This document shows, one piece after another, positions 1,509 to 51,911 of a stretch of 64,000 nucleotides of DNA. The stretch is from a virus. The stretch's first letter is position 1. Each line of letters opens with the position of its first letter. Below the pieces are notes generated by a model. It made no database searches and was not told where the DNA came from. It saw only the letters and a program-made list of their open reading frames with translations. Location: IMG/VR virus record IMGVR_UViG_3300006919_000001, positions 19,396 through 83,395 of that record; one strand, given 5' to 3'. The position numbers were made by a program, and so were the translations under genes.

Positions 1509-2041
1509 TTTAAATATATTTTTCTAAGTTCTCTTATTGCTATTCTTTTTCTACTCTTTATTGTTCCCAATGGAACTCCTAATACCACACTTGCCTCAAG
1601 TTCGCTTAGCCCCCGAAAGTATAGTGCATTCAAAACACTTTGATATGGTAATCTTAATGACCTTATGTGGTGGTGTATAAAAGTTTTATCCAACTCTTTT
1701 TCCACTGGTGCTTCTAGGTGAAAATTATAATCCTGATTGTCTATAGAATCTTCTCTGAAATTCCTCAGATTAAAAGACCTTTGAATATCAATGGTTTTAT
1801 TCTTTACTATTTTTAACATCCAAGTATATAACCTTCCAGCCTTTGGATTATATTTATCTCTATTCTCCCAAATCTTAATAAATGATTCCTGCATAGCATC
1901 GGAGGATAGTGTGTGGTCTTTTAGAATACCATAGGCTGTCTTATAAAGCTGATTATAATAATTCTTGTATAATATACTCATTGCCTTTTCAGGCTCGTTA
2001 GAGAGCTTTAAAGCGAGGGACTCTTCCATGTCTACTTTCAT
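1505..2041 (-). CDS. ECF-type RNA polymerase sigma factor
   Basis: 178 aa with the two-domain layout of group 4 (ECF) sigma factors. Region 2 lies at about residues 20-85 (LYKNYYNQLYKTAYGIL, SSDAMQESFIKIWENRDKY). Region 4 lies at about 125-178, with a helix-turn-helix (LSELEASVVLGVPLGTIKSR). Region 4 would contact the -35 element and the host core enzyme. A phage ECF sigma factor suggests redirection of host RNA polymerase to phage promoters, and this phage also encodes its own single-subunit RNA polymerase. The gene overlaps both its neighbours (37-aa membrane protein upstream, UvsY-like downstream). Confidence 0.88.
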   Translation of the reverse strand: MKVDMEESLALKLSNEPEKAMSILYKNYYNQLYKTAYGILKDHTLSSDAMQESFIKIWENRDKYNPKAGRLYTWMLKIVKNKTIDIQRSFNLRNFREDSIDNQDYNFHLEAPVEKELDKTFIHHHIRSLRLPYQSVLNALYFRGLSELEASVVLGVPLGTIKSRKRIAIRELRKIYLK

Positions 2042-6867: not shown

Positions 6868-7665
6868 TTAATTTGAATCCAAAACTAATTGAACCGCAAG
6901 CTTTACTTTGTCCCACGAAACAGTTCCATTCTCATCTGCATACAATGCTGGATCTTGCCTTCCAATTTCTAAAAACGCCTCTACTCTTTCAACCGAAGAT
7001 GCTGATTTATAATCAGAATACCAATGACCTTCGATTAAAATAGGCTTGTAGGATGTAAGCGTTTTAGAATACGCTGTGTCAAAATCAATACCTAACTTTT
7101 CACATGATACTAAACCTTCTCTTAATATATCAGCTTTCATCATTTCCAAATATGGAGTATAAAAGGAAACCTTATCCGCTCCCCAATTACCCTCCACAAA
7201 TGCTTTGAAATCAGCATCTCTAAATTCCTGTCTACAGTCTGGATACACAGCATGGTCTCCGGCATGGATTCCCATTGCAATCTTTACATCGCAACCTCCA
7301 TTTTCAGCAGAAACACTTAAAGCCACAGCTTGAATGATGGATGAAAATATTTTATTCCTATTTGGAACCACTGTGGCCTTCATGTTTTCATTCTCATAAT
7401 GACCCTCCGGCACATCCTCTCCACCTTCAACTAATGCTGAATTTAATAATGAAGTTAGGGTACTTAGGTCTATTACTTTATGTGTGACCTTGCAGCCTTC
7501 ATCCGTTAAATAATTAACTAAAGATTGGGCCTTTAATAATTCTACCCTATGCTTTTGTCCGTAGTCAAAAGAAAGTGCTGTTACTGAATAATCGTTAGCC
7601 AATAAGTTTAATAAAAGGGATGATGAATCCATCCCGCCTGATAATGATAATACCGCTCTTTTCAT
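6868..7665 (-). CDS. queC: QueC-like 7-cyano-7-deazaguanine (preQ0) synthase
   Basis: 265 aa, ATP pyrophosphatase (PP-loop) fold with SGGMDSSSLLL at the N-terminus, the usual YGQKHRVEL segment and VVPNRNKIFSS. QueC converts 7-carboxy-7-deazaguanine to preQ0 with ATP and ammonia, the last step of preQ0 synthesis. Bacterial QueC has four zinc-binding cysteines near the C-terminus (SCY and CxxCxxC before ER.EAF). Here the same stretch reads TSYKP ... SDYKSASSVERVEAF, with Ser or Asp at every one of those positions. The structural zinc site is therefore absent. The start adjoins the P-loop gene upstream, in the deazaguanine island. Confidence 0.9.
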   Translation of the reverse strand: MKRAVLSLSGGMDSSSLLLNLLANDYSVTALSFDYGQKHRVELLKAQSLVNYLTDEGCKVTHKVIDLSTLTSLLNSALVEGGEDVPEGHYENENMKATVVPNRNKIFSSIIQAVALSVSAENGGCDVKIAMGIHAGDHAVYPDCRQEFRDADFKAFVEGNWGADKVSFYTPYLEMMKADILREGLVSCEKLGIDFDTAYSKTLTSYKPILIEGHWYSDYKSASSVERVEAFLEIGRQDPALYADENGTVSWDKVKLAVQLVLDSN

Positions 7666-7666
7666 T

Positions 7667-8179
7667 TTAAATGTTTTTTAATAATGTTTCTAACCTTTCC
7701 TCCACTGTTCCAGTTAATGTAATTGGAGATAAACCGTGGTAATCTATTCTCTCTAATAATATTTCATCAATTTCTCTTTGAAAACTTTCTCCTTCAAATC
7801 GAATTCCATCGCTAATCAAACCAAATTCAATTGGTATATAAAAGAATTTAACATCGGGGCGTGGAGTACTTGTAAATAAGTTATTCCTTCTTTCAGCCAA
7901 ATCATCCCAACCCAGAGCCTTGCAATATGCATAGTGGTCTAGTGGAGTCCTTGTTGTAAATAGGTTACTTATTCGAGTTTCTAAATCCCATTTATTGTCT
8001 GAAATTCTATTAATCAATATCTGCTGGTCTCTTGCGGTTAACTTACCTCCAATTTCTTTATCGAAGGCTTTAACTATTCTTGAATCACCATCTTTAACTA
8101 TGTAATTAGAGCCTCTAAGGGCCAAACTATTTAGCAAGGTAGTTTTACCTACACCGTGTGTTCCTATTAATGCTATCAT
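7667..8179 (-). CDS. P-loop NTPase / nucleotide kinase-like protein
   Basis: 170 aa. The N-terminus is a Walker A motif, IGTHGVGKTTLLN. Further motifs are kinase-like (TTRTPLDHYAYCKALG, RPDVKFFYIPIEF), similar to the AAA_28/NadR-type kinase group. It overlaps the upstream TGT-like gene by four bases and abuts queC, so it is translated with the deazaguanine enzymes. It may phosphorylate a nucleoside or deoxynucleotide in that pathway; the substrate cannot be read from the sequence. Confidence 0.7.
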   Translation of the reverse strand: MIALIGTHGVGKTTLLNSLALRGSNYIVKDGDSRIVKAFDKEIGGKLTARDQQILINRISDNKWDLETRISNLFTTRTPLDHYAYCKALGWDDLAERRNNLFTSTPRPDVKFFYIPIEFGLISDGIRFEGESFQREIDEILLERIDYHGLSPITLTGTVEERLETLLKNI

Positions 8180-8958
8180 ATTAAATTCTTTTTAAATGAG
8201 CTTACGTTAAAGTCTATTGCTGCCCGTTGAGACTTTGTAGGAATGTGGGACAAAAGGTCAACTAATTTAATTGATTCTTTATAGTCCAGCGCTCCACCCT
8301 CATATGTGATATTTTTAATACCATGTACAATCGGGTTAGAAGTATCCAAAGAATAAACCCACTTATAATCTTTATAGTGTTTAAATTCTTGAGGTAATGA
8401 GCATCCTAATAAATGGTGTTCTTTTTCCTCATTAATAATACCTTCTTTTAACCAACGGTCAATCAGATTTTGACGACCTTCCATTCTACCTTTATCCGTT
8501 TGTTCGTAGTATGGATAATGGAAACAAATTGCGATTTGGTCACAAGCCCTATCCATGGCCCTGTAGCATGCAGTTAGTTCTTCATAGGTTGAACCCTGAA
8601 CTACCCCAATTGCTTTGCCCGGCACGTGGGCATAATACCTAAACCAATCATCTAGTTGTTGGCAAGTTTCCATTCCTTTCCCAAGTACATCTGGTACTAC
8701 ATAATGACTTGGTTTTAGTTTCATAATCCAGTATGCAAATTTGCTTGCTTCAAAAGCTTCGCCCAATTCAAATATGGAGTTATCTAAAATTACATCTCTA
8801 CCCGATTCTACCACGTCTTTATAAAATTGATAATACACAGAATTCTCTTCAAATAAATGAACGAGTGCATAATCATAATCATTAAATTCTAAGCTTTCTC
8901 CCAACATACAAGTTGGGACCTCGTGTGATACTTTGATTCTATTTATCGCTTGACCCAA
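8176..8958 (-). CDS. DpdA-like DNA transglycosylase paralogue (TGT fold), divergent
   Basis: 260 aa. Short blocks match the tRNA-guanine transglycosylase barrel: DVILDNSIFELGEAF (first catalytic Asp region), HYVVPDVLGKG, AIGVVQGSTYEEL, HLLGCSLPQEF and VYSLDTSNP (candidate nucleophile Asp). The zinc site of tRNA-acting TGTs is missing, as in phage DpdA enzymes that exchange guanine for a 7-deazaguanine in DNA. It sits between dUTPase and the P-loop/queC pair. A second TGT-like gene (10149-10952) lies 1.2 kb away, so this phage carries two different paralogues. Confidence 0.7.
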   Translation of the reverse strand: MGQAINRIKVSHEVPTCMLGESLEFNDYDYALVHLFEENSVYYQFYKDVVESGRDVILDNSIFELGEAFEASKFAYWIMKLKPSHYVVPDVLGKGMETCQQLDDWFRYYAHVPGKAIGVVQGSTYEELTACYRAMDRACDQIAICFHYPYYEQTDKGRMEGRQNLIDRWLKEGIINEEKEHHLLGCSLPQEFKHYKDYKWVYSLDTSNPIVHGIKNITYEGGALDYKESIKLVDLLSHIPTKSQRAAIDFNVSSFKKNLI

Positions 8959-9376
8959 AACCTTTTTCCCCCCTATCTGCTTTAGTTACTTCATCAATAA
9001 ATGAAACCTCAGATGGTATCATAAAGTATGGAATTATTTGAGCAACTCCTTGCCCTTTTTTTATTACCTGAGTGTCACTTGAAAAGTTATATAATTTAAC
9101 TCCCAAGTCTCCGCGGTATCCATTATCAATAATTCCCAAGTGTGGTTGTAATCCTTTCTTGAATCCCAACCCAGACCTTGGTTCTATTCTGAACCAATAT
9201 CCCGGAGTTATATATCCCAATTTTAAACCCACCGATACTACTGCCGAACATCCAGCTTCGATTAATACATCCTCTACTGAGAATAGGTCATAACCAGCAT
9301 CTCCAGTTGATTTGCAATCATGGTTCTTTTCTGGAAGCATAGCCTCCTCATGTGTTTTTACAAATTTTATTTCCAT
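8939..9376 (-). CDS. dut: dUTP pyrophosphatase (dUTPase)
   Basis: 145 aa trimeric dUTPase with all five family motifs: AGYDLFS, PRSGLGFKKG, GIIDNGYRGDLGVKL, KKGQGVAQIIP and the C-terminal RGEKGFGSSDK. It hydrolyses dUTP to dUMP and pyrophosphate, keeping uracil out of phage DNA and supplying dUMP. Its 3' end overlaps the DpdA-like gene and its 5' end shares a base with the folE stop region, so it is embedded in the nucleotide/deazaguanine operon. Confidence 0.95.
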   Translation of the reverse strand: MEIKFVKTHEEAMLPEKNHDCKSTGDAGYDLFSVEDVLIEAGCSAVVSVGLKLGYITPGYWFRIEPRSGLGFKKGLQPHLGIIDNGYRGDLGVKLYNFSSDTQVIKKGQGVAQIIPYFMIPSEVSFIDEVTKADRGEKGFGSSDK

Positions 9377-10083
9377 TATCTTAAGTTATTTGCTAATTCA
9401 ATATTCTTATAAAATTCACTTCTTGCCATTGGCTCAGTAAAGAAAGCTCCAGTTAATTTTGCTGTTTGCATTGAAGCACCTTGATGTCCAACACCCCTAC
9501 AACTTACGCAATTATGTGTTGCCGAAATGTGTACGGCTACTCCTAAATTACCTTCGCAAATTTCCTCTACTGCGTTATGAATAGCGACTGTCAATTGCTC
9601 TTGTATAGCACCTCTTCTTCCGAAGTGTTCAACTATTCTATTTAGCTTTGATAAGCCTACTACCATTCCTTCGCTTGATGCAATGTAGGCTACGCTTACT
9701 TTTCCCATAATAGTTTGGTGGTGGTGGCTACATTGAGATACCAATGGAATATTACTTTCCTGCACAATAGCTCCATACCCATCACTTGGGAATGCAGTTA
9801 TTTTACTCATGTTTTCATAACGTCCCTTCCATAGGTCATTCACATAAGCTTTGGCCACTCTGCGTGGAGTGTCATTTGAATTTGGATCATTCTTCCAATC
9901 ACAACCTAATGCGTCTAAGAAATATCCATATGCGACCGCTGCATTGTTTATGATTACCTCTTTTTCTTCGGTTGATAATACTGCCTTTTTCCCCTCCGCT
10001 TTTTGCTTTTCTGCCAACTGCGTTGAAATTCCATTGGAGTGGCCAATTTTGGCTATCTCTAGGTTTAATACTTTTTCACTCAT
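9376..10083 (-). CDS. folE: GTP cyclohydrolase I (FolE)
   Basis: 235 aa. The C-terminal two thirds carry FolE signatures: SQCSHHHQTIMGKVSVAYI (zinc/substrate residues), GLSKLNRIVEHFGRR, EQLTVAIHNAV and HNCVSCRGVGHQG (zinc Cys). It converts GTP to dihydroneopterin triphosphate, the first step toward preQ0. An N-terminal extension of about 50 residues (EKQKAEGKKAVLSTEEK) is longer than in minimal enzymes. With queD, queE and queC in the same operon the phage has the whole GTP-to-preQ0 route. Confidence 0.95.
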   Translation of the reverse strand: MSEKVLNLEIAKIGHSNGISTQLAEKQKAEGKKAVLSTEEKEVIINNAAVAYGYFLDALGCDWKNDPNSNDTPRRVAKAYVNDLWKGRYENMSKITAFPSDGYGAIVQESNIPLVSQCSHHHQTIMGKVSVAYIASSEGMVVGLSKLNRIVEHFGRRGAIQEQLTVAIHNAVEEICEGNLGVAVHISATHNCVSCRGVGHQGASMQTAKLTGAFFTEPMARSEFYKNIELANNLR

Positions 10084-10120
10084 ATTTGTTTTCTAGTTTT
10101 ATTATTATTCGTTAAAGGTA

Positions 10121-10142
10121 TGGAGAACTTTTCAATTCTCCA
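10121..10142. promoter_or_regulatory. Inverted repeat upstream of folE
   Basis: Perfect seven-base arms TGGAGAA / TTCTCCA around an eight-base loop, in the 65-base gap between the TGT-like gene and folE. A TACCTTTAACG box follows on the minus strand. It may be an operator, a processing hairpin or part of a weak promoter. Confidence 0.4.
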
Positions 10143-10148
10143 CGCCTT

Positions 10149-10952
10149 TTAAAATGTATCGTATAAAAAGCTTCTGCTCTTAGCTCTTGCAAATGCATAT
10201 AGGGCCGCGTGTATTTTTAACTCTGCATAGGTATCCAATTCTGGATGCTCTTTTCTAGCATGAGCCAAATTGATAGCATATTGAAAAATTGAATAATCCA
10301 CAGTATCCGGTCGAACGAATTTAAAGGTCTCCACATTTTGGCAACCTAGTAAATGAACCTTCTTTCCACACTGTCTAGCATAGTTCATCATTTTCAATAA
10401 CTCTTCCCTATTGGTATGCCATGCTCTCTCCTGAGCTAAACCTCCAATTGCTAAAGTTGGATACATTTCGCTTTCACATAAATCTTTCCAATATTGAAAT
10501 CCTTGGTGTAGTTTAAATACTGGAGTAGGATACATGCCTGTAACATCAAACACCTCTTGCCTGCAATAATTGGATGGACACAATAGGTCTTCCGATTTTC
10601 TAAAGTATTCATTATCCAATTCAAATATCATATGATACTCTGCAATGGAACACATTTTTAAAAATTTCCTTTTCATCTTTTCACAAAGCTTTTCGAAATC
10701 TTCCTTGTCCAGTGTTTGTTGCTTTTTAAATAAAGTAAAACCACCAGAATCCAAAAATAATCTATCCTTGCCAACCATGTCATAAATCTCTTTCGTTACC
10801 ACAAATGGCATATCTACTGTTGAGATTAATACACTATTTGTAAAGGAGTCAAGTAGAGCTGGAAGTACTTTTCTCCACGTACCCTTTTCTCCGCACGAAT
10901 AGATAAGTCCGGCACCTAGTCCGTATACTAATTTGTCCTGCTCTTTACTCAT
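10149..10952 (-). CDS. DpdA-like 7-deazaguanine DNA transglycosylase (TGT fold)
   Basis: 267 aa TIM-barrel protein of the TGT superfamily. Visible blocks are RLFLDSGGFTLFKK (equivalent of the DSGGFQ substrate loop), FKLHQGFQYWKDL, LAIGGLAQERAWH (GGL/GE ribose-binding loop), VHLLGCQN and VDYSIFQYAIN. It lacks the zinc-binding CxCxxC of tRNA TGTs, as expected for a DNA-acting DpdA. It would swap guanine in phage DNA for preQ0 or a derivative. The gene follows a ParB-like gene with an 8-base overlap, so the two may act as a pair. Confidence 0.82.
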   Translation of the reverse strand: MSKEQDKLVYGLGAGLIYSCGEKGTWRKVLPALLDSFTNSVLISTVDMPFVVTKEIYDMVGKDRLFLDSGGFTLFKKQQTLDKEDFEKLCEKMKRKFLKMCSIAEYHMIFELDNEYFRKSEDLLCPSNYCRQEVFDVTGMYPTPVFKLHQGFQYWKDLCESEMYPTLAIGGLAQERAWHTNREELLKMMNYARQCGKKVHLLGCQNVETFKFVRPDTVDYSIFQYAINLAHARKEHPELDTYAELKIHAALYAFARAKSRSFLYDTF

Positions 10953-11373
10953 CTTTTTTTCCTTTTAAAAGTTCCTCTAAATCTTTCTTATTGTTACTGA
11001 ATGAGGTGAGTCCTAATTCTCCCATGAGCTCATCTGGATTCTCAGACATTAGCCTGTCAATTTCAGCATAGTTCCATTGGGAATATTCTCCCACTCTATT
11101 GTCAGCAATTACAAAACCCTTTATCTGGTCTTCCGTTAATCCACTTATTGCAAGCACATCAATTTCGCCTTCATATTTTAGAAGCTTCAAAGCTTTCAAC
11201 CTTGTGTGTCCAGCTAGTATCATTAGCTTGTCGGTAACCACTATTGGATTGATATATCCGTAGGCCTCAATTGACTTGGCAACCACTTTTGCAGATTTAT
11301 TATTTCTACGTGGATTCCTTCCATAAGGGACAAGGTCGTTTATATCTACCTTTATTAATTTTTTCTCCATCAT
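10945..11373 (-). CDS. ParB/Srx-fold protein, partner of DpdA
   Basis: 142 aa with an N-terminal ParB-type nuclease/CTPase-fold domain: VDINDLVPYGRNPRRN, KSIEAYGYINPIVV, LAGHTRLKALKLLK and KGFVIADNRVGEYSQW. In phages this domain is often linked to DNA modification genes, where it is thought to help recognise DNA. Here it overlaps the TGT-like gene by eight bases and heads the transcript segment leading into folE and the rest. No partition system (ParA, parS arrays) is seen. Confidence 0.8.
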   Translation of the reverse strand: MMEKKLIKVDINDLVPYGRNPRRNNKSAKVVAKSIEAYGYINPIVVTDKLMILAGHTRLKALKLLKYEGEIDVLAISGLTEDQIKGFVIADNRVGEYSQWNYAEIDRLMSENPDELMGELGLTSFSNNKKDLEELLKGKKDE

Positions 11374-11405
11374 TATTTGTTTTTATTATTAATATTAATT
11401 CTTAG

Positions 11406-11476
11406 CCGTCGGTGTGGGAATCGAACCCACGGTCTTTTACTGTACTGTAAATGCTCTACCTTTGAGCTATCCTCCG
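11406..11476 (-). tRNA. tRNA-like element 2
   Basis: 71 nt with a canonical D-arm (GCTC-AAAGGTA-GAGC) and perfect T-arm (GTGGG-TTCGATT-CCCAC). The acceptor pairs CGGAGGA with ACCGACG but contains a tandem G-A/A-G mismatch and an A-A. The anticodon stem TTTAC/GTAAA is perfect, but its loop has six bases (AGTACA) rather than seven and lacks U33, so no anticodon can be assigned. CCA is not encoded. It is either a decayed tRNA or a specialised tRNA mimic. Confidence 0.55.
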
Positions 11477-11490
11477 TTTTGTAGCTGCGA

Positions 11491-11640
11491 TTTAAAAAAG
11501 ATCGAACTTTAGAAAATTTAGCTACATTTTGTGGTCAAAAAAGATCGTTTTACATTTTTTACAAAATATATTTTTATCAAATCCAGCTTTTTCAAGCGCG
11601 ATTTCGATCTTTTCGATCTTAAAATCGATCTTTTTAAATC
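11491..11640. repeat. GATC-rich iterated motif region with inverted repeats
   Basis: Five GATC sites occur within about 130 bases (11500, 11543, 11606, 11616, 11627), each inside the motif AAAAGATCGA or its complement. Two face right and three face left. The outer copies form an inverted repeat GATTTAAAAAAGATCGA / TCGATCTTTTTAAATC. The stretch is non-coding and AT-rich and lies between tRNA-like element 2 and queE. It could be a replication origin, a ParB-like or DpdA recognition site, or a regulator-binding region. Confidence 0.6.
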
Positions 11641-11678
11641 CGTATGTCGAAATGCGTGAACCGTTAATTACTAACTAG

Positions 11679-12467
11679 TTACACTTCTCTCTGGTCTTCA
11701 AAGGCAATAATGTGTGGCCTCCATGTCATACGATATCCGTTATCCCTTACCCAATCAAATACCAATGGGTATGATTTGAATAATGATTCCCTAGAGTCGC
11801 CTGCAGGCATGAACCAAACCTTACCACTTGGTGCCTCTATGCAATCGAGAAAATATAATATCTCATCAAGTGCATCCTCATCTTTACCATCCCACACTGG
11901 TTTGATATGAAAGTCTTTATGGTAATTGATTGACTTTGAAATCGCATCCACATTAAGCCTAAACTTATTGTGTTGTCTAATCATTTTCTCATCCGTAATT
12001 TTTCCCTTGGGAGTTTCCACTCCAAGCACCGGAACACTATTACTAAACTTTGGACTAATAGATAATAAATCAATAGGATAATCAGTTTCAAGAAAATGAC
12101 TACCCTCAGTTTCGATTGTAATAAAAATTCCATTATCATTTGCAAAATGTGTTAATTCATTTACCAGCTTAGGCCACATTGTCGGGCTTCCGCCTGTAAG
12201 CATCATCTCCTTGATATGTGGATTCTTTTTATAAGCTTCCACTATATCATCAAAAGAGTAGAGCCCCTTGTCCGGATGAATGCTCGTGTACCATGAATCA
12301 CACCAACCGCCTTCTCCAAAAAAGCATCTATGTGTACATCCGGTGGTCCTGATTACCACAGTTGGATAACCTGCCCTACTACCCTCTGATTGTACCGCGG
12401 TATAAATCTCAACAATTCCTTGCCTTTTTGATTTGTCCTCCTCGGACATTCTTTTTATTTTTCCCAT
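11679..12467 (-). CDS. queE: 7-carboxy-7-deazaguanine synthase (QueE), radical SAM
   Basis: 262 aa. The radical-SAM cysteines lie in TTGCTHRCFFGEGGWCDSWY (Cys at three positions for the 4Fe-4S cluster), preceded by EIYTAVQSEGSRAGYPT as in QueE. MMLTGGSPTMW is the SAM-binding GGxP segment. The enzyme converts 6-carboxy-tetrahydropterin to CDG, the third step toward preQ0. The spacing between the first two Cys and the third is typical of the short-cluster-loop QueE group. It lies downstream of queD. Confidence 0.92.
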   Translation of the reverse strand: MGKIKRMSEEDKSKRQGIVEIYTAVQSEGSRAGYPTVVIRTTGCTHRCFFGEGGWCDSWYTSIHPDKGLYSFDDIVEAYKKNPHIKEMMLTGGSPTMWPKLVNELTHFANDNGIFITIETEGSHFLETDYPIDLLSISPKFSNSVPVLGVETPKGKITDEKMIRQHNKFRLNVDAISKSINYHKDFHIKPVWDGKDEDALDEILYFLDCIEAPSGKVWFMPAGDSRESLFKSYPLVFDWVRDNGYRMTWRPHIIAFEDQREV

Positions 12468-12661
12468 CTTAATATTACATTTTGGTCTAATACTTTATCT
12501 GGACAATCCAGAAATCTTTTAATTATTTCATCCCTCTCTTTTAGTAAACATTCTTCCTTGGAACATTTTTCTAAAATATTAAACTCAAATAATTCTCCAT
12601 CATCATATGTAAACCTAATTTTCTTTATAAATTGAACTATTGTTGTCGTTCTCCCAACACT
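12455..12661 (-). CDS. Open frame lacking an ATG between queD and queE
   Basis: A frame of up to 68 codons, open from a TAG at 12662-12664, runs through the end of queD and the gap, and stops inside the first codons of queE (TAA at 12455-12457). The predicted peptide is protein-like: KKIRFTYDDGELFEFNI, then LEKCSKEECLLKERDE and RFLDCPDKVLDQNV. There is no in-frame ATG, GTG or TTG early in the frame; an AUA or AUU start, or a frameshift from queD, would be needed. It may be a real gene with a non-standard start. Confidence 0.4.
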   Translation of the reverse strand, partial: SVGRTTTIVQFIKKIRFTYDDGELFEFNILEKCSKEECLLKERDEIIKRFLDCPDKVLDQNVILRWEK

Positions 12662-13109
12662 CTACTTTTGTAACTCTACACCTAGCACCATCCGTTAAGG
12701 CCAACCTTTCATTAAAATGGTCATAGACTAGCTTAGCGCAACTCTCTGCGCCCATCTTTTCTAGTACGACTAACTTAGCCAAGCCTAGCTCTTGAAGCAC
12801 CTCAAAAGTCTCTAATTGCGGGTCATCCTTTTCAATTAACAAAGTATGATCCCACATGCTATTCATCCATTTCTTTAGGCCATTGCCCGGAGTTGGTTCC
12901 GCATCCGTATCTTTGAATCCACCATAGTCAACTACCCAATTCATTTCGTCCAATCCTTGGTTTCCATCCATTGGAGTATTCGATTCAAAATACACTTTAA
13001 ATTTTAAAGCATACCCATGTAATAATTGACAATGAGAATGCGCAGCTCTCCACTGTCTTAATGCAACGCTGTAATTGCTAAACGTTTTTGTAGATTGATA
13101 TAGTCCCAT
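12615..13109 (-). CDS. queD: 6-carboxy-tetrahydropterin synthase (QueD)
   Basis: 164 aa. Zinc-binding histidines lie in AAHSHCQLLHGYALKFKV, followed by MNWVVDYGGFK and MWDHTLLIEKDDP as in QueD/PTPS proteins. Residues CAKLVYDHFNERL and VTKVECWEND complete the fold. It converts dihydroneopterin triphosphate to 6-carboxy-5,6,7,8-tetrahydropterin, the second step of the preQ0 route. It starts two bases after the stop of a small membrane-protein gene. Confidence 0.9.
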   Translation of the reverse strand: MGLYQSTKTFSNYSVALRQWRAAHSHCQLLHGYALKFKVYFESNTPMDGNQGLDEMNWVVDYGGFKDTDAEPTPGNGLKKWMNSMWDHTLLIEKDDPQLETFEVLQELGLAKLVVLEKMGAESCAKLVYDHFNERLALTDGARCRVTKVECWENDNNSSIYKEN

Positions 13110-18836: not shown

Positions 18837-18912
18837 TAAGAGACTTTAAATTAAAAGCTTGTATAATATACTACTTTTAATTTAAAGTCTCTTAAAACGC
18901 TTGTTATTGATT
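18837..18912. repeat. Perfect 21-bp inverted repeat with conserved tail sequence
   Basis: Arms TAAGAGACTTTAAATTAAAAG and its exact complement (18837-18857, 18874-18894) flank a 16-base loop between two fibre genes. The right arm runs into GTCTCTTAAAACGCTTGT plus ATTGATT, which recurs at 25359-25385 and in altered form at 52060. It could be a bidirectional terminator or a recombination site for fibre-gene exchange. Confidence 0.7.
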
Positions 18913-18914
18913 TA

Positions 18915-20825
18915 TTAGATTGTAATTTCCTTTATTGAAATTCCTATATCGCAATTAAAAACTACTGTTCCATCAAATGACATGAAAGGGCTTACAGCAC
19001 CCATTGTGAAAGCAAACTTCCAAATACCATCCGTTAAAGTATAATTAGAATATTGATAAGTTGAACCGTTATATATGTCAATCCTAGTGTCACCAGTTAA
19101 ATTAGAAATATCCAAAGTCATTTCATAAGGTACACCAGTCACACAATTCGAAAACGACAATGACGGTCTAATTGTACTACCACTAGTTCCATCGCTAGTG
19201 CAATTATAATTCAATGGAGACGTTAGAGTTGCTATTGCCCCTGCATCATTTGATATTGCTATATTACTAGCTATTTCAGTTGTCTCCAATTGTGGACTTC
19301 CAACCATCACAATATTATCAATGCTAAATGCACCTCCAGTACTGCTATTTATTGCAGCTACAAGGAAGCTGGCAGCAGAACCTGTGTTATAATTTACACC
19401 AGCATAAATATGAGAACCATTTTGAAATTTACGATAACTCACAAGATTAGGATTACCACTACCACTACCCCACATTGCAAAATAAGCATCCTCTGCAACC
19501 GCGACATTAGATATATCAAACGAAATGACATAGGTATCGTATTGTTCGATATAATCAGTAATAGATAAAATTTGACTTAATTTTTTAGAAGTTATCACCC
19601 CGTCATAAGTAGCCACTCCTGAACCTATAGACCAACTGTCTTGCACTGTCCAATCACTAGCAGTGTCAAATGTTCCATTTATGATTTGGTTATTTGAACC
19701 TCCATCAGTAATTGTCCAACCGTAAGTATTAATTAATGTATTTCTAGCTGCTTCCGCCGCTCCTCCATAACTATATCTTGAATTTCCGAAACTAATTACT
19801 TGATTTAATTGCGGTACTTGACCCGCCCAAGATATTAATGTCGCATCGTAGTTTGCTGTTGAAAGTGTTGCATCAATAATAAAAGATGTACCAAAATCTG
19901 CTATTGTAGATATATCCCAATTCGCTAAACTTCTATCAAAGTTATAACATTGGTAAAACATAGACCTTACGGTTGTAACCCCATTCATATCGAAATTTGA
20001 AACATCAACATTATTTAAAACCCTTGCTTGATAAAACAAAAGGGACATATCCGTAGCACTTGTAGTGACCCAATTGCTTACATCTAAATTTACTATAGAA
20101 TTAGTATTACTTCTAAACATTTGAGTAAATAACGTAACGTTACTCACGTCCCAATTACTAACATCTATAGTTGTTAAATTAGTATTATAAAACATTGCAG
20201 ACATATTTGTAGCGTTACTCACGTCCCAATTACTAACATCTAAAGTGGTCAAACTAGTTGAATCTCGAAACATTATGTCTAATCTGTCAGCACTAGACAT
20301 GTCCCAATTAACTACATTTAAAGATATTAAATTTGTACAACTTCTAAAAGTATCAGTCCAACGTGTAACGTCAATTAAATTAGGTATATCCGTAGCCGTT
20401 ACTGTTGTTAATTGGTTACAACCTCTAAAAGACCTATACATAGTTTTCCATGCAATTTCCCCCCATTGTTTAATATCTATTAATTTAGATTTATCACCAC
20501 CATCATTAAAAAATATACTTGGAAAATTACCACTAATTGAAACATCGTAAGTTCCAGCACTTGGAAAAGTAATTGTTAAGTTACCTATATTTCCTAAGAT
20601 TGTTTGTCCATCGGAAGTACTTACATCGTATAAGTACGTTTCAGTCCCAGTGGGTATAGTGAATTGAGTGTCTAAACTAGTTCCAACATTATCCGTTTTA
20701 ACTTGAATTATAAATGGAGCCAATGGTGGAATGTTATCATAAACTAAAGTACTTCCTAAGTATAGCTTAGATATTTCTGAGCTACCTATATACATTTTAG
20801 ATATATCTATATTTCCTATTTTCAT
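18915..20825 (-). CDS. Tail fibre with BspA/DUF285 repeats and jelly-roll C-terminus
   Basis: 636 aa. The N-terminus is a two-copy virion-anchor motif (KIGNIDISKMYIGS, SEISKLYLGSTLVYD). Residues about 110-330 contain at least six repeats of the DUF285/BspA type (LTTLDVSNWDVSNATNMSAMF and variants), which form leucine-rich-like surface solenoids. The C-terminal 260 residues (IINGTFDTASDWTVQ, IEQYDTYVISFDI) resemble CBM_4_9-like carbohydrate-binding jelly rolls. It probably binds the host receptor. Confidence 0.75.
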   Translation of the reverse strand: MKIGNIDISKMYIGSSEISKLYLGSTLVYDNIPPLAPFIIQVKTDNVGTSLDTQFTIPTGTETYLYDVSTSDGQTILGNIGNLTITFPSAGTYDVSISGNFPSIFFNDGGDKSKLIDIKQWGEIAWKTMYRSFRGCNQLTTVTATDIPNLIDVTRWTDTFRSCTNLISLNVVNWDMSSADRLDIMFRDSTSLTTLDVSNWDVSNATNMSAMFYNTNLTTIDVSNWDVSNVTLFTQMFRSNTNSIVNLDVSNWVTTSATDMSLLFYQARVLNNVDVSNFDMNGVTTVRSMFYQCYNFDRSLANWDISTIADFGTSFIIDATLSTANYDATLISWAGQVPQLNQVISFGNSRYSYGGAAEAARNTLINTYGWTITDGGSNNQIINGTFDTASDWTVQDSWSIGSGVATYDGVITSKKLSQILSITDYIEQYDTYVISFDISNVAVAEDAYFAMWGSGSGNPNLVSYRKFQNGSHIYAGVNYNTGSAASFLVAAINSSTGGAFSIDNIVMVGSPQLETTEIASNIAISNDAGAIATLTSPLNYNCTSDGTSGSTIRPSLSFSNCVTGVPYEMTLDISNLTGDTRIDIYNGSTYQYSNYTLTDGIWKFAFTMGAVSPFMSFDGTVVFNCDIGISIKEITI

Positions 20826-44447: not shown

Positions 44448-44729
44448 TTAGTTATTTGCCCAAGTAATACATTTGAAGTTTGCATCACCAGCATCTAGAA
44501 CAATCGTGTATTCTAAATCCACGTGCATTAAATGTGGGGAACGGTCTGTGTAATGGTATGTAAATACAGCACTACCGCCTACGTAGGTTTTTGTGATATA
44601 GTCATCTCCATTCGGATTTGCACAATGAACCGTTGGCACATCGGCTTTTGTAATTACCGGTTCTGGAGAGCTCATTGAGATACTCACGATTCCAGCAAAG
44701 ATTGCCATTGTTAAAAATACTTTTTTCAT
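44448..44729 (-). CDS. Secreted 93-aa protein with signal peptide
   Basis: The best start is the ATG giving MKKVFLTMAIFAGIVSISMS, a classical signal peptide; upstream codons of the longer frame overlap the 58-aa gene and look unreal. The mature part (SSPEPVITKADVPTVHC, ending FKCITWANN) has two Cys that could form a disulfide. Function unknown; expected in periplasm or outer membrane. Confidence 0.65.
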   Translation of the reverse strand: MKKVFLTMAIFAGIVSISMSSPEPVITKADVPTVHCANPNGDDYITKTYVGGSAVFTYHYTDRSPHLMHVDLEYTIVLDAGDANFKCITWANN

Positions 44730-46112: not shown

Positions 46113-46640
46113 TTAATCAAACGGGTTTCCACCAGGATCTGGAGGTCCAGTTATTGCTGAAAAATCAGTTTCTGAAGATACCATTTCTTTAAACTCATCA
46201 TCGGAATTAAAAGCCGAGATTGTAAAGATAGCGGTTCCTTTCATACTTTGTGGAATATCCACATAAATTAAACCTTTCTTTTCAATAAACTTTTCTTCAT
46301 AAGTTGCATGAACTGCTCCGCTCTTATTTAAGATAATTACTTCAAGTACATAATAACAATACTTGTCCCAAGGCTGACGGTCAACATCTAGTTCTGCAAC
46401 TAGGTGTCCAGCCGAGGCTCTGGTTACACTAATAAGTGTCAAATCATAATTACCTTGTGAACCAGGGTATACCGCAGTACTCCATGGACCATAGTAACAA
46501 GAAGAGCCGGGATTATCCATAGTGCTACTTTTCGTAATCTCAGTTTCAAAAACCGATTGGTCATCCATCTGGATTGACTCATCTTTACTACAGCTGGACA
46601 TTCCAACCATAAGTACTAATAATAATAATACTTTTTTCAT
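46113..46640 (-). CDS. Phage-encoded lipoprotein
   Basis: 175 aa counted from the internal ATG that gives MKKVLLLLVLMVGMSSCSKD, a lipoprotein signal with lipobox GMSSC; upstream codons of the longer frame lie in the leader and are unlikely to be translated. The mature part is beta-rich (YDLTLISVTRASAGHLVAEL) with a Pro/Asp/Gly tail (GPPDPGGNPFD). Surface lipoproteins made early are typical superinfection-exclusion or phage-resistance factors. It has its own promoter (46862), a structured leader and a strong terminator. Confidence 0.75.
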   Translation of the reverse strand: MKKVLLLLVLMVGMSSCSKDESIQMDDQSVFETEITKSSTMDNPGSSCYYGPWSTAVYPGSQGNYDLTLISVTRASAGHLVAELDVDRQPWDKYCYYVLEVIILNKSGAVHATYEEKFIEKKGLIYVDIPQSMKGTAIFTISAFNSDDEFKEMVSSETDFSAITGPPDPGGNPFD

Positions 46641-46936: not shown

Positions 46937-46968
46937 GTAGGTTGGTATTATAATTTTTTGTATCTTTG
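46937..46968 (+). promoter_or_regulatory. Plus-strand promoter of RNA cassette 3 (consensus)
   Basis: Plus strand GTAGGTTGGTA, 13 bases, TATCTTTG, a near-perfect family member on the strand opposite to the genes. The best evidence that cassettes are transcribed rightwards. Confidence 0.85.
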
Positions 46969-46974
46969 GTTATA

Positions 46975-47092
46975 CGCAATAAGACGTGGGCTGGAGGGCA
47001 TATCAACTCCAGAAGAGTAGACCTGACTGAACCTCTGTTTGTAAAATCTGAGGTGTGCAATCAGTTGCCCCTTGAGGCATTGTATCAAATCC
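46975..47092. ncRNA. Structured RNA cassette 3, flanked by inward-facing promoters
   Basis: About 118 bases without an ORF. Stems visible: CTGGAG / CTCCAG; a two-part helix ACTGA-ACCTC ... GAGGT ... TCAGT; and GCC / GGC near the end. The left promoter (46937, plus) and the right promoter (47098, minus) both point inward. Confidence 0.6.
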
Positions 47093-47097
47093 TTACA

Positions 47098-47128
47098 TAA
47101 AGATACAAAAAAATCCTTTGAAACGCAC
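47098..47128 (-). promoter_or_regulatory. Right-hand promoter of RNA cassette 3
   Basis: Minus strand GTGCGTTTCAA, 12 bases, TATCTTTA, pointing left into cassette 3. Shares the AAGGAT spacer start with 46862. Confidence 0.6.
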
Positions 47129-47130
47129 AT

Positions 47131-47530
47131 GTTTAGGCTAAAGATTTTGTCGAATTGTCATTTTGACAAAAATATGTAACTAGTTGATACTTAAATGCAA
47201 GCTATGTCTTTTTACCGGGGTTGATGCAAGCTTTTTTGCAAGAAAACGGCTTTCCACTGAGAATAGTGCAAAAGCACGGATTTGTTCATAAAGAAAAGTG
47301 TTAAAAAATTTGGATATAAAAGAAAAAAAGCGCGCCTGTTTGTTCCCCCACCTTTTTTTAAGTCCGTTGTTGTAAAACTTCTAATAACCAAAACATAGCG
47401 ATACAAGGGTTTTTTCCGTAACTATGTGGGGATGTGGCCCTTTACTCAAATCTGGTATAAGACCTCCTGTTTTTACAATCCTGTTCCTAAAATCCATACC
47501 TTGGAGTCCTTCCTACTGTATGGGTAAATA
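47131..47530. other. 400-base stretch without a convincing gene
   Basis: Between cassette 3 and the Lys-rich small gene. Short frames exist on both strands (for example a minus-strand 38-codon frame starting MDFRNRIVKTGGLIPD near 47490, and a plus-strand 26-codon frame starting MQAFLQENGFPLRIV near 47224), but none has the usual A-rich leader and operon context. A direct repeat ATGCAAGCT occurs at 47194 and 47224. It may hold decayed genes or a boundary between transcription units. Confidence 0.4.
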
Positions 47531-47698
47531 TCATCCAGTTGTTAATGTTTCTGTCCGTTTGGTTGAATTTGATTCTATTTCTATTCTTTGTTTTTTTTTG
47601 TATAACTTGCTCTTTTTTATAGATTTTCTATTGTTCGTTTTCTTTTTTAGTGTTGACCTGCCGTTTTGTTCATTTTGGTATAAACGCGATATGCTCAT
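47531..47698 (-). CDS. Lys-rich 55-aa protein, possibly the end of an amber-interrupted gene
   Basis: ATG at 47696-47698 gives MSISRLYQNEQNGRSTLKKK and a very basic C-terminus. The same frame is open upstream through LYECIRDIALE to a TAG, and beyond that TAG continues back to an ATG (MHISSHTIDLTAFKDKVS). The combined peptide reads like one helical protein with a single amber codon. It could be a pseudogene, a read-through gene or two peptides. Confidence 0.45.
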   Translation of the reverse strand: MSISRLYQNEQNGRSTLKKKTNNRKSIKKSKLYKKKQRIEIESNSTKRTETLTTG

Positions 47699-47814
47699 TT
47701 CTAAGGCTATATCTCTTATGCATTCATATAACTATGACACTTTATCTTTAAACGCTGTTAAATCGATTGTATGGGAGCTTATATGCATCTCTTATAAAGA
47801 GTTTAATATAATTA

Positions 47815-47964
47815 TTATATTTTTGCATATGGTATATACACTCTTGTATTACATCTTTGGCAATACAAATGGTGTGTTATTACACTATGGTCTACTTTCT
47901 TTTCTTCTGTACTATCTTTATATACTACTAGGTTACTTGCTTTGTGTTTACATTTGAATATCAT
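47815..47964 (-). CDS. 49-aa zinc-binding microprotein
   Basis: ATG at 47962-47964, stop at 47815-47817. MIFKCKHKASNLVVYKD ... HHLYCQRCNTRVYIPY has C-x-H and CxxC ligands as in small zinc ribbons. Its presence on the minus strand argues that the overlapping long plus-strand frame is not a gene. Confidence 0.6.
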   Translation of the reverse strand: MIFKCKHKASNLVVYKDSTEEKKVDHSVITHHLYCQRCNTRVYIPYAKI

Positions 47965-47971
47965 AGCTTTA

Positions 47972-48139
47972 TTATTCTACTGGTTGACTGTTTTGTAATT
48001 CCTCCAGCTCCTCCTTGGTCATATACTTTATGCTGAAGTAGTCTTCCTTCTCTTCTATTATTCCAATATGACTCAAGCCTCCTGACTTAGGGGTGTTCAT
48101 CATATAGTTTACCGTGTGTTTCATTATAAATAATCTCAT
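47972..48139 (-). CDS. Hypothetical 55-aa protein
   Basis: ATG at 48137-48139, stop at 47972-47974. The peptide MRLFIMKHTVNYMMNTPKSG ends with an acidic helix (MTKEELEELQNSQPVE). A GTATATTTG box lies about 20 bases upstream. Its function is unknown. Confidence 0.55.
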   Translation of the reverse strand: MRLFIMKHTVNYMMNTPKSGGLSHIGIIEEKEDYFSIKYMTKEELEELQNSQPVE

Positions 48140-48185: not shown

Positions 48186-48737
48186 TTATTTCTTTAATAT
48201 CTTTTTGGTTACTGTATATCCTTCTACTGTTCTTATGATTGCCATATAGATTCCAGTGGATAGATTGTCCAGCATTACCTTATTCTTTCTTGTTGTTGTC
48301 CTAAAATCTTTTACTAGCTTTCCACTTAATGTGTAGACCTCGATTGATTGTATTCCATCTCCTTCTATGTAAACGTATCCTTCACTTGGAGTTGGCCATA
48401 GTTTGAAGTCTCTGTTTGCTATCGGAACCATTGGTACACTTAATACCTCTCCTCTTATCTCTAACCATGCTGAATCGCATCCAAGAATTATCTCTCCTTC
48501 ATTTAGTATTTCTCCTATTACAATTATATGTGCATTGAGAATCTCTAAGGTGAACCCGTTCATATCTAGATTACCCTGAATGGTTATCTCGAAGTCATCG
48601 GTTGAATCACATGCGTTTCCATATGTATAATTTGCTTGCATTACTTCTATTTGGTTGGCAACCTCTTCTCCATTCTGTCTTTGACTAAATGATAGTGTGG
48701 TGCTTACTAGTAATAGTATTGTAAGTAATCTCTTCAT
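48186..48737 (-). CDS. Secreted protein with T9SS type A C-terminal sorting domain
   Basis: 183 aa. The N-terminus is a signal peptide (MKRLLTILLLVSTTLSFSQR). The C-terminal 75 residues have the type A sorting-domain pattern of Bacteroidota: FKLWPTPSEGYVYI, IQSIEVYTLSGKLVKDF, LSTGIYMAIIRT, VTKKILKK. Such domains direct cargo through the type IX secretion system to the cell surface. The middle part (residues about 25-105, with CDSTDDFEITIQGNLDMNGF) is a small beta domain. A phage gene using host T9SS could modify the host surface. Confidence 0.82.
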   Translation of the reverse strand: MKRLLTILLLVSTTLSFSQRQNGEEVANQIEVMQANYTYGNACDSTDDFEITIQGNLDMNGFTLEILNAHIIVIGEILNEGEIILGCDSAWLEIRGEVLSVPMVPIANRDFKLWPTPSEGYVYIEGDGIQSIEVYTLSGKLVKDFRTTTRKNKVMLDNLSTGIYMAIIRTVEGYTVTKKILKK

Positions 48738-48755: not shown

Positions 48756-49076
48756 TTACCAATTACTCATATCAATCTCTTCTATAAAAGTGATATATTC
48801 ATCCGGTATTAATTTGTGGGATTGTATTTCATATCCTCTATACTTAGTTCCTATTTCTAATCCAGTTAGTATCATTAAATCCACACTCACCATCAAATAA
48901 TATTCTCTACCATCTTGTAATACTTCTGTATTGGCTACTATAAGCTCATCTACCGCATCAAAGAAATCCTTTAATGTATTTATACGCCCGACTAATTTGG
49001 GTTCCTTAAAACCTCCTTTTAGTCTCATGTATCCTCTTGCCCTTATTATAGCTTCAATGTTTATATCTTTCTCCAT
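48756..49076 (-). CDS. Hypothetical 106-aa protein
   Basis: The start chosen is the internal ATG of MEKDINIEAIIRARGYMRLK, because the longer frame runs back into the 52-aa membrane gene. Contains LKDFFDAVDELIVANTEVLQ and a Tyr-rich strand. It lies just upstream of the T9SS cargo gene in the same operon. Confidence 0.6.
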   Translation of the reverse strand: MEKDINIEAIIRARGYMRLKGGFKEPKLVGRINTLKDFFDAVDELIVANTEVLQDGREYYLMVSVDLMILTGLEIGTKYRGYEIQSHKLIPDEYITFIEEIDMSNW

Positions 49077-49078
49077 GT

Positions 49079-49237
49079 CTATTTCTTTTTGTCTAAATAT
49101 ATGCAACATAGTGCACCAACTAACATTCCAACTAGGAATTCCCACCCTACCTTATCAAAGTAAGCTAAAAATCCAGTAAGTAATGCTATTAGAAATATAA
49201 GTCTTCCACCTCTTGGGCTCTCTTCGTATGTTGTCAT
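49079..49237 (-). CDS. 52-aa two-helix membrane protein
   Basis: ATG at 49235-49237, stop TAG at 49079-49081. MTTYEESPRGGRLIFLIALL and WEFLVGMLVGALCCIYLDKK: two hydrophobic segments with a basic C-terminus. The start overlaps the stop of the zinc-ribbon gene upstream. Confidence 0.6.
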   Translation of the reverse strand: MTTYEESPRGGRLIFLIALLTGFLAYFDKVGWEFLVGMLVGALCCIYLDKKK

Positions 49238-49356
49238 AGTATGTCTTCTGATTTACAATATCTATCGCAATATGCCTGTGTTGCTGGTCTTCCGCAATTC
49301 TTACATTTGCCTACTTTATCCTCACCCTGAGGGTCTATTTCATCATAATAATTCAT
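49234..49356 (-). CDS. 40-aa zinc-ribbon microprotein
   Basis: ATG at 49354-49356; MNYYDEIDPQGEDKVGKCKN continues CGRPATQAYCDRYCKSEDIL. The CxxC ... CxxxC pattern suggests a zinc ribbon. Overlaps the membrane-protein gene by four bases (ATGA). Confidence 0.65.
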   Translation of the reverse strand: MNYYDEIDPQGEDKVGKCKNCGRPATQAYCDRYCKSEDIL

Positions 49357-49501: not shown

Positions 49502-49747
49502 TTACCAAACCTTCATTCCACATCTTGCCATCTCATTAGACCACTTAACTAAAATCTTTTCTTTTCTTTGGTAGAACAAAGGACTGAATCCATTTTCATA
49601 CCCAACCTCCAAACAAGTTTCAGAAGCGTTTTTTCTTAATTCTTTTAATTGAGCTTTAAATAAGGCAATGTTTGTCTCTGCCTCATCATCTAATAAATGT
49701 AACTCATTTTTTTTGTAACTCGTTTTTGCTAAAGTTTCAGTTCTCAT
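49502..49747 (-). CDS. Hypothetical 81-aa protein
   Basis: Begins MRTETLAKTSYKKNELHLLD; helical, with FKAQLKELRKNASETCLEVG. It follows the 65-aa gene in the operon driven from 49996. Confidence 0.6.
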   Translation of the reverse strand: MRTETLAKTSYKKNELHLLDDEAETNIALFKAQLKELRKNASETCLEVGYENGFSPLFYQRKEKILVKWSNEMARCGMKVW

Positions 49748-49758
49748 AATATTTGTCT

Positions 49759-49956
49759 TTAAACTCTTAATAATTTAATATTCTTTTTAAGGGTTTTTAG
49801 CTCTTCTGCATAATATGCATTAACTATCTCATGGTGTCTAGGCCTTAAATCCTTTTCTTTAATCCTAAAATAAATAGCCATTGCCTCGGTTCTTGATTGT
49901 GCCTTGATATGTGCATGGCATGATAATAATTGGTCTAATAAAATAAAAGTTTTCAT
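49759..49956 (-). CDS. Hypothetical 65-aa protein
   Basis: Begins MKTFILLDQLLSCHAHIKAQ and ends AEELKTLKKNIKLLRV. First gene after the promoter at 49996. No family is recognised. Confidence 0.6.
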   Translation of the reverse strand: MKTFILLDQLLSCHAHIKAQSRTEAMAIYFRIKEKDLRPRHHEIVNAYYAEELKTLKKNIKLLRV

Positions 49957-49995: not shown

Positions 49996-50026
49996 CAAAG
50001 ATACGGACACATATTTGATTCCACAC
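49996..50026 (-). promoter_or_regulatory. Phage promoter (variant)
   Basis: Minus strand GTGTGGAATCA, 12 bases, TATCTTTG, preceded by AAAGTTTTTTAG as in the consensus copies. It drives the small-gene operon 49956-48186. Confidence 0.8.
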
Positions 50027-50330: not shown

Positions 50331-51911
50331 TTATCTTTCCTCTACTGACCATGATGAATCTATTTCTAGTGTACAGTTTTCTATACCTGTTATGTTTTTA
50401 ACATTCCAGAATAAGAATTCATTTTGATTTAATATTACGTTTGCCATACTGCTAAAATATGTAATGTCTCTTCCACCTTGTAAGTTATTTACAACTCTGG
50501 TTTGTGAGAATAATATATTATCTACCCCATCATTTTTGATAAGGTCTATTGTATATTCAGCATTGGCAGCTCCCTCTAATACAAAATCAAAGTTAACTGT
50601 ATATTCTCTAGGATTAATTCCCAAATGCCTTAACCTTCCATTGGATGGAGAGTCAAAGTGCTGTAGGTCTGTATTGGCAAACGTTCCAGCTATTTGAACT
50701 GGAGTATTTATAGTTGCTATAACCGTTTCTATCTGTGTAGATATTGTTGCTATTCCCCCTACAAAAGTGTTTGGCAATCCATTGTTTCCTTTCCAAAATG
50801 ATGCTAAATCTGAAGCGGATATGTTTGGCGTCAAGTTTGTATCTTTTGGAGACAATACTCCGTCTCTAGTGATTATTGTATTCCTTATATCCAACGTTCC
50901 AGGGTTTGGAAAGTTCACTTGTGAAAAGTCAAATAAAGATGCCAGAGTTGGCAAGTCACAATTGATATCCGTTAAGAATCTACTGTTCATTAAGAAAGCA
51001 GTTCCTGCTTTAAATAATGGTGTGGCCATTGATGCACTCAGGCTTCTAACTATTGAAGTTGTTATTCTGTACCCACCTAGCCAAGTTCCATGTAAAGTTA
51101 GAGATGGTGCTCCACCAAATCTTCCAGTCCCTTCCTCTAGTCCTTGTCTATAGTTATACATATCACCCAATGAGGAGCAGTCTATGAAGTTAACTCTTGC
51201 GAATTCAAATGCACTAAAACCCGTAGCATCATACAATTCATATACTTTACTATTAGTTCCTGATGTGGTTACAAAGTAATCGACACCTAGAATATTTCCA
51301 CTTCCAATTTCTGGAGATTCGGATACAAACATTGTATAATTATCTGCAGTGGAAACTAATCCAGCTACATCAAAGCTTGCGCCTCCTAATGTTAATCCAG
51401 TTGGTGGTACTGTAATTTGAGTTGTACCCATATCTATAACTCCATCTATGAAATATTTCTTAGATGAATCTATTATTCCACCAATTGTTTGGTCTTTATT
51501 TAATTGAGTAACCCTTATTTCAGAGTCTCTCGTATTAAGTTCTAATTGATTTGCAATTGCATTCCTATCAGATAACCAAGTTGAACCATTCCATACATAG
51601 AATCCCGCTGGATAGTATGTCCCACCAAGAGAACCGGGTGCCCAAGATGTTCCTTGGGAATTGTATACGTATGCTATTTGACCTAGGCTTCCGCCCGGTG
51701 TTAATGATGAATAATTATTTGCTACTTCTGTTATTTGAATAGCTGCGCCTGATGTCGCCTCGTTTATTGCTATTGGAATCTTACTATAATTGTATTTGTA
51801 CAATACATTTATGTCCTCAGCCCAATAGAAATCTCCGTATGGAAGTTCGCTTGGCTTATCAGCGTCGAGTCCTCCGTAGTGATTTATTGTGTATTGTCTT
51901 AAAAAACTCAT
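50331..51911 (-). CDS. Fibre protein with shared N-terminal virion anchor (1)
   Basis: 526 aa from the ATG at 51911 (the frame is open 10 codons further, but this start has the usual A-rich leader). The N-terminus INHYGGLDADKPSELPYGDF is clearly related to the next fibre gene. The body is beta-rich, with Asn/Ser/Gly repeats (YVYNSQGTSWAPGSLGGTYY). The C-terminal 130 residues look like a receptor-binding head. It follows a homologous-headed fibre gene, so the two likely share one attachment site on the virion. Confidence 0.7.
   Translation of the reverse strand: MSFLRQYTINHYGGLDADKPSELPYGDFYWAEDINVLYKYNYSKIPIAINEATSGAAIQITEVANNYSSLTPGGSLGQIAYVYNSQGTSWAPGSLGGTYYPAGFYVWNGSTWLSDRNAIANQLELNTRDSEIRVTQLNKDQTIGGIIDSSKKYFIDGVIDMGTTQITVPPTGLTLGGASFDVAGLVSTADNYTMFVSESPEIGSGNILGVDYFVTTSGTNSKVYELYDATGFSAFEFARVNFIDCSSLGDMYNYRQGLEEGTGRFGGAPSLTLHGTWLGGYRITTSIVRSLSASMATPLFKAGTAFLMNSRFLTDINCDLPTLASLFDFSQVNFPNPGTLDIRNTIITRDGVLSPKDTNLTPNISASDLASFWKGNNGLPNTFVGGIATISTQIETVIATINTPVQIAGTFANTDLQHFDSPSNGRLRHLGINPREYTVNFDFVLEGAANAEYTIDLIKNDGVDNILFSQTRVVNNLQGGRDITYFSSMANVILNQNEFLFWNVKNITGIENCTLEIDSSWSVEER

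What the first reader, a model, noticed from the sequence alone, without database searches (positions are those of the whole stretch)
48186..48737. Phage gene for a type IX secretion cargo
A signal peptide plus a clear type A T9SS C-terminal domain in a phage small-gene operon. Exporting a protein to the host surface by T9SS would let the phage change adhesion, motility or receptors during infection, for example to block superinfection.
Basis: partly seen in the sequence, partly recalled or inferred. Interest (0 to 1): 0.75.

Follow-up and report, generated by a model that had tools for sequence, protein, structure and literature searches.

The report
Phage-encoded type IX secretion cargo
A virus that infects marine Flavobacteria-like bacteria carries a small gene whose protein ends in the bacterium's own 'export me to the cell surface' tag, so the virus probably decorates or modifies its host's surface during infection; this has been seen before in a few other phages, but this protein's business end is new and its job is unproven.

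Summary
On the minus strand at 48186-48737 lies a 183-aa ORF with a Bacteroidota-style signal peptide and a type A T9SS C-terminal domain (residues ~111-183). It scores above curated cut-offs for PF18962 (38.3 vs 27 bits) and TIGR04183 (39.6 vs 23). The model's CTD is confident (pLDDT >90 for most of it), and its three best PDB matches are T9SS CTDs, two of them bound to the SprA translocon. The record (83.4 kb) is a tailed phage related to Cbastvirus (Cellulophaga phages phiST and phi13:1, Tenacibaculum phage Larrie). The gene lies in an operon-like small-gene array behind a flavobacterial-type promoter, set off by a terminator from the tail genes. It is absent from five genome-sized relatives, so it is an accessory gene. 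The ~90-aa passenger is an orphan. The concept is not new: Bellas et al. 2020 (PMC7468147) described phage-encoded T9SS cargo in 'Cryophage' and proposed superinfection exclusion. I also found such genes in two ~640-kb phages and several IMG/VR contigs. Export by the host T9SS is likely (~0.8). What the protein does on the surface is untested. Verdict: real; a new member of a known kind.

The parts
48186..48737 (-). T9SS type A cargo gene, 183 aa (whole ORF)
48681..48737 (-). signal peptide, residues 1-19 (MKRLLTILLLVSTTLSFSQ)
   Evidence: simple hydrophobicity rule; resembles the N-termini of the cargo proteins of phage LR745206
48414..48680 (-). passenger, residues 20-108, orphan, probably beta-rich, 2 cysteines
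   Evidence: no relative at E<=0.001 in 395 genomes of the class, one negligible hit at E<=0.01 in 397 genomes of the family; low-confidence model
48189..48407 (-). T9SS type A C-terminal sorting domain, residues 111-183
   Evidence: PF18962 and TIGR04183 over cut-off; fold match
49996..50026 (-). promoter-like motif GTGTGGAATC-N13-TATCTTTG heading the small-gene array
   Evidence: six copies of the motif in the window, 0.015 expected; the -7 part and leader are 78% identical to Cellulophaga phage phi10:1
50057..50081 (-). intrinsic terminator separating tail genes from the small-gene array
49759..49956 (-). first small gene of the array (65 aa)
49502..49747 (-). small gene of the array (81 aa)
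49234..49356 (-). small Cys-rich (zinc-finger-like) gene, 40 aa
49079..49237 (-). small membrane protein gene (52 aa), overlaps its neighbour by 4 bp
48756..49076 (-). gene just upstream of the cargo (106 aa), 18-bp gap
47972..48139 (-). gene just downstream of the cargo (55 aa)
46113..46640 (-). nearby exported lipoprotein (175 aa, lipobox MSSC), followed by a terminator at 46104-46071
44448..44729 (-). nearby exported protein with a signal peptide (93 aa)

Best explanation
The gene is an accessory gene of a Cbastvirus-like flavophage that makes a small surface effector exported by the host's own T9SS. Steps: (1) the small-gene array is transcribed from a flavobacterial-type promoter, apart from the tail genes, so the protein is made during host takeover and not as part of the virion (motif and terminator shown; timing inferred); (2) the signal peptide sends it through Sec to the periplasm (inferred); (3) the type A CTD docks in the host SprA/PorV translocon and the protein crosses the outer membrane (CTD sequence and fold shown; export inferred); (4) the CTD is probably removed and the ~90-aa beta-rich passenger is anchored on, or released from, the cell surface (inferred); (5) there it masks or changes a surface structure, most likely to hinder adsorption of competing phages (inferred, roughly 0.28). 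The overall confidence refers to steps 1-3.
For: CTD over curated thresholds; CTD conserved residues P115, P117, G139, G162, Y164 and K179 kept in an alignment with 31 bacterial CTDs; CTD fold best matched by T9SS CTDs, including two in SprA complexes. Phage record with terminase, portal, T7/N4-like RNA polymerase, kin infecting Cellulophaga and Tenacibaculum. Shared promoter motif and a terminator isolate the array from the tail genes. The same anatomy recurs in unrelated phages: LR745206 and LR756502, next to a DnaJ-like gene in both, IMG/VR contigs L027-L029 and L177, and published Cryophage (PMC7468147). T9SS/gliding genes are phage-resistance loci in Flavobacteria (PMC9233685, PMC13288928).
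Against: Host unknown, so a working T9SS in it is not shown. The near-invariant YPNP motif reads WPTP here. No homologue of the passenger, so no function can be read from it. Absent from all related phages checked, so dispensable. The signal peptide was judged by a simple rule only.
Confidence: 0.78

Rival explanations
1. A captured host T9SS fragment with no phage function: the phage picked up a truncated bacterial cargo gene that is drifting and has not been kept by selection.
For: Orphan passenger, absent in relatives, CTDs are very abundant in Flavobacteria, so capture by chance is easy.
Against: Intact 183-codon frame with signal peptide and full CTD; 18-bp gap to the upstream gene in a compact array; independent recurrence of such genes in several phage lineages.
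Confidence: 0.12
2. The exported protein serves something other than superinfection exclusion: a public good or lysis/biofilm aid (as the enzymes reported in Cryophage), or a decoy released from the surface that binds outer-membrane vesicles, receptors or competitors.
For: Cryophage cargos are an endoglucanase, a GH39 and a PA14 protein, i.e. not obviously exclusion factors.
Against: This passenger is only ~90 aa and matches no enzyme family.
Confidence: 0.35
3. A virion protein: the CTD is used as a structural domain in the particle.
For: The gene lies about 1.6 kb downstream of a tail-associated gene (50331-51911), and in contig L027 a CTD gene sits next to likely structural genes.
Against: Signal peptide; terminator and separate promoter between the tail gene and this array; no PHROG match.
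Confidence: 0.05

Closest known systems
Cryophage T9SS type A cargo genes (Bellas et al. 2020, PMC7468147)
   Same: Phage-encoded proteins with type A sorting domains in a ~76-kb Bacteroidetes phage, in variable genome positions; same proposed use of the host T9SS.
   Different: Those cargos are recognisable enzymes or PA14 proteins and lie in metagenomic islands of a cryoconite phage; here the passenger is a ~90-aa orphan in a Cbastvirus-like phage.
T9SS-CTD genes of the ~640-kb phages LR745206 and LR756502
   Same: Small proteins (about 117-199 aa) with signal peptide, short passenger and type A-like CTD.
   Different: Different passengers; no clear passenger similarity to this one.
Bacterial T9SS type A cargo (TIGR04183/PF18962), e.g. 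RemZ, mirolase
   Same: Sorting domain by sequence and fold.
   Different: Phage-borne, very small passenger, WPTP in place of YPNP.
Lipoproteins encoded by Cbastvirus relatives in the variable region after the terminase (phiST CGPG_00010, Larrie 18904-19227)
   Same: Exported small proteins in the same genomic neighbourhood.
   Different: Lipoprotein route, not T9SS; no sequence similarity shown.

Membership tests
T9SS type A cargo (TIGR04183 / PF18962) | C-terminal sorting domain scoring over the curated model cut-offs | tested here: met
   38.3 vs 27 bits; 39.6 vs 23 bits
T9SS type A cargo (TIGR04183 / PF18962) | Ig-like beta-sandwich CTD fold | tested here: met
   pLDDT mostly >90 over the CTD; top three PDB hits are T9SS CTDs 8qb1, 8gl8, 8gl6
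T9SS type A cargo (TIGR04183 / PF18962) | Conserved motifs YPNP, G at the second motif, GxY, basic C-terminus | tested here: inconclusive
   P115, P117, G139, G162, Y164, K179 and the C-terminal KK are kept; Y114 is W and N116 is T
T9SS type A cargo (TIGR04183 / PF18962) | N-terminal Sec signal peptide | tested here: met
   rule-based only: K/R n-region, hydrophobic core 2.9 KD, SFSQ end; no trained predictor available
T9SS type A cargo (TIGR04183 / PF18962) | Producer cell has a T9SS | not testable with these tools
   host not known; kin infect Cellulophaga and Tenacibaculum
T9SS type A cargo (TIGR04183 / PF18962) | T9SS-dependent surface localisation | not testable with these tools
   needs experiment
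Phage-encoded T9SS cargo (Cryophage kind) | Gene lies inside a bona fide phage genome and not in host flank or contamination | tested here: met
   phage genes on both sides; terminase, portal, RNAP; neighbouring stretch down to ~49.7 kb 100% identical in a second IMG/VR record, L145; same promoter motif as other phage operons
Superinfection-exclusion protein | Expression alone blocks adsorption or entry of phage | not testable with these tools
   needs experiment
Virion structural protein | Similarity to known structural families or late-gene position | tested here: not met
   no PHROG match; terminator and own promoter separate it from tail genes

The most novel reading that the evidence does not exclude
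A dedicated phage superinfection-exclusion (receptor-masking) factor that reaches the cell surface by hijacking the host T9SS, the pathway whose exported adhesins may serve as receptors for flavophages.
Probability: 0.28. Interest if true: 0.7.

Novelty: new member of a known kind. Interest (0 to 1): 0.42.

Why it matters
Few phage proteins are known that use a dedicated host secretion machine to act from outside the infected cell. T9SS is central to gliding, adhesion and phage sensitivity in Flavobacteria, so a phage-borne cargo offers a small, testable protein for asking how phages remodel the host surface. The recurrence found here (Cbastvirus-like phage, two ~640-kb phages, several IMG/VR contigs) suggests that the Cryophage case is not unique.

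Tried and rejected
Chance ORF or misread strand: rejected. Bacterial contamination or host flank: rejected. Orthologues in phage kin: none in phiST, Larrie, phi13:1, IMG/VR 78.5-kb and 75.8-kb relatives, or fragments. Close homologues of the whole protein: none in IMG/VR or GTDB contigs. Relatives of the gene just upstream: none in IMG/VR. Passenger homologues in Bacteroidota: none convincing; apparent near full-length matches come from different passengers pulled in by the CTD. Passenger against PDB: weak chance-like hits only. 'Phage' records MT836089, MT836839, MT837615 with CTDs look like bacterial contigs from faeces and were not used as evidence. A six-sequence CTD alignment was too diverse for the locus search. 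The huge-phage cargo has no relatives in IMG/VR by this method. The sigma-70 promoter scan was not above chance.

Full report
WHAT IS THERE. The reported interval holds one open frame, on the minus strand (48737 to 48186), 183 codons, ATG start. No simple dinucleotide-block shuffle of the region gave an ATG frame of more than 165 codons in 300 trials. The protein has three parts: a signal peptide (1-19, MKRLLTILLLVSTTLSFSQ; judged by a simple hydrophobicity rule), a ~90-residue passenger, and a C-terminal domain from about residue 111 to 183.

THE SORTING DOMAIN. Pfam PF18962 matches residues 113-180 at 38.3 bits (cut-off 27). NCBIfam TIGR04183, the type A T9SS sorting domain, matches 114-183 at 39.6 bits (cut-off 23). 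In an alignment with 31 bacterial CTDs the invariant P115, P117, G139, G162, Y164 and the basic end are kept, but the near-invariant Y114 and N116 are W and T (WPTP for YPNP). A profile of that alignment finds the CTDs of solved T9SS cargos (8glk, 8glj, mirolase 8qb1, RemZ 8gl8, gingipain R2). AlphaFold2 models the CTD with pLDDT mostly above 90 and the passenger poorly. Foldseek's three best PDB matches are the mirolase CTD, the RemZ CTD in the SprA-PorV extended translocon, and the RemA CTD complex. So the CTD identity is shown by sequence and by fold; export itself is inferred.

THE GENOME. The window is part of an 83.4-kb virus record with a terminase, portal and T7/N4-like RNA polymerase. 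The portal is 68% identical to Cellulophaga phages phiST, phi13:1 and phi19:2 and 56% to Tenacibaculum phage Larrie, i.e. Cbastvirus and kin. The terminase-to-tail stretch is 100% identical in another IMG/VR record, L145, which ends at ~49.7 kb, just before the cargo. The host is not known; the kin infect gliding Flavobacteriia, presumably T9SS-positive (own knowledge).

THE SURROUNDINGS. The gene is one of the last members of a tight minus-strand array (49956 to 47972; gaps of -4, 2, 18 and 46 bp around it). A strong terminator (50081-50057) ends the tail-gene unit upstream, and between it and the array lies GTGTGGAATC-N13-TATCTTTG. Related GTAGGTTC/GTGTGGAATC ... TANNTTTG motifs occur six times in the window, always on the minus strand and just upstream of small genes (6.8, 40.8, 43.3, 43.9, 45.8, 50.0 kb), against 0.015 expected; TANNTTTG is the flavobacterial -7 consensus (own knowledge). 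The -7 part and leader at 50 kb resemble a site in Cellulophaga phage phi10:1 (78% over 75 bases). This argues for expression as host-takeover genes, separate from the structural genes; timing is inferred. Two other exported proteins lie close by: a lipoprotein (46113-46640, followed by a terminator) and a secreted 93-aa protein (44448-44729). Relatives carry small lipoproteins, in several cases in the same variable region after the terminase (phiST, Larrie, L147, L006).

HOW WIDESPREAD. No CTD was found in phiST, Larrie, phi13:1, or IMG/VR relatives of 78.5 and 75.8 kb, or in smaller fragments: the gene is an accessory acquisition. But CTD genes recur in other phages: LR745206 (a 199-aa protein over cut-off, a second small protein just under it, plus a weak third hit) and LR756502 (186 aa), where the main gene lies next to a DnaJ-like gene in both; IMG/VR contigs of 62, 82 and 228 kb (610-633 aa cargos; the last two carry the same gene); and two 7-kb contigs with a PARCEL-repeat cargo. 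Three faecal 'phage' records with CTDs look bacterial and were set aside.

THE PASSENGER. No Pfam, PHROG or NCBIfam match. No relative in IMG/VR or GTDB contigs, nor convincingly in ~800 Bacteroidota genomes. Its alternating pattern (NLDMNGFTLEILNAHIIVIGEILNEGEI) suggests beta structure; the model is too poor to say more. Function cannot be read from it.

LITERATURE. Bellas et al. [quoted passage not shown] T9SS/gliding mutations go with phage resistance in F. columnare (PMC9233685) and C. baltica, and the T9SS-exported adhesins SprB and RemA may be phage receptors (PMC13288928).

VERDICT. T9SS export likely (about 0.8); superinfection exclusion about 0.28.

Noticed in passing
window minus strand 50026, 45791, 43883, 43261, 40793, 6851: A repeated promoter motif, GTAGGTTC or GTGTGGA(A/T)TC, then 13-16 bases, then TANNTTTG, heads small-gene arrays; 6 found, 0.015 expected.
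   Followed up: partly
1505-2041 (-): The phage encodes a sigma-70/ECF-like factor (Sigma70_r2 51 bits) besides its own single-subunit RNA polymerase; it might read the repeated promoter motif.
   Followed up: no
6868-13109 (-): 7-deazaguanine gene set: QueC, FolE-like 9376-10083, radical SAM QueE-like 11679-12467, QueD-like 12615-13109 and a possible DpdA-like gene 10149-10952 (FolE, QueE, QueD and DpdA identities by eye), suggesting modified DNA.
   Followed up: no
50331-51911 (-): Tail-associated protein (phrog_16509) whose only relatives among 50,697 phage records are in Pseudoalteromonas phages (~50% identity), a cross-phylum sharing of a probable fibre domain.
   Followed up: partly
18915-20825 (-): Probable tail protein with PARCEL/BspA-like repeats; the same repeat type appears to be the passenger of the T9SS cargo in IMG/VR contig L177.
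   Followed up: no
46113-46640 and 44448-44729 (-): Two further exported proteins (a lipoprotein and a secreted protein) without database matches, near the T9SS gene.
   Followed up: partly
L131 (contig of G516, 8.4 kb): A 203-aa protein that looks like the cargo of huge phage LR745206 in both passenger and CTD lies in an 8.4-kb contig filed under a bacterial genome; possibly a misbinned huge-phage fragment or the cellular source.
   Followed up: no
L023, L024, L025 (MT836089, MT836839, MT837615): Faecal 'Bacteriophage sp.' records that look like bacterial contigs, with large T9SS-CTD proteins and typical cellular genes.
   Followed up: partly
46940-47970: About 1 kb with little convincing coding sequence between the cargo array and the lipoprotein gene, unusual in a compact phage genome.
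   Followed up: no
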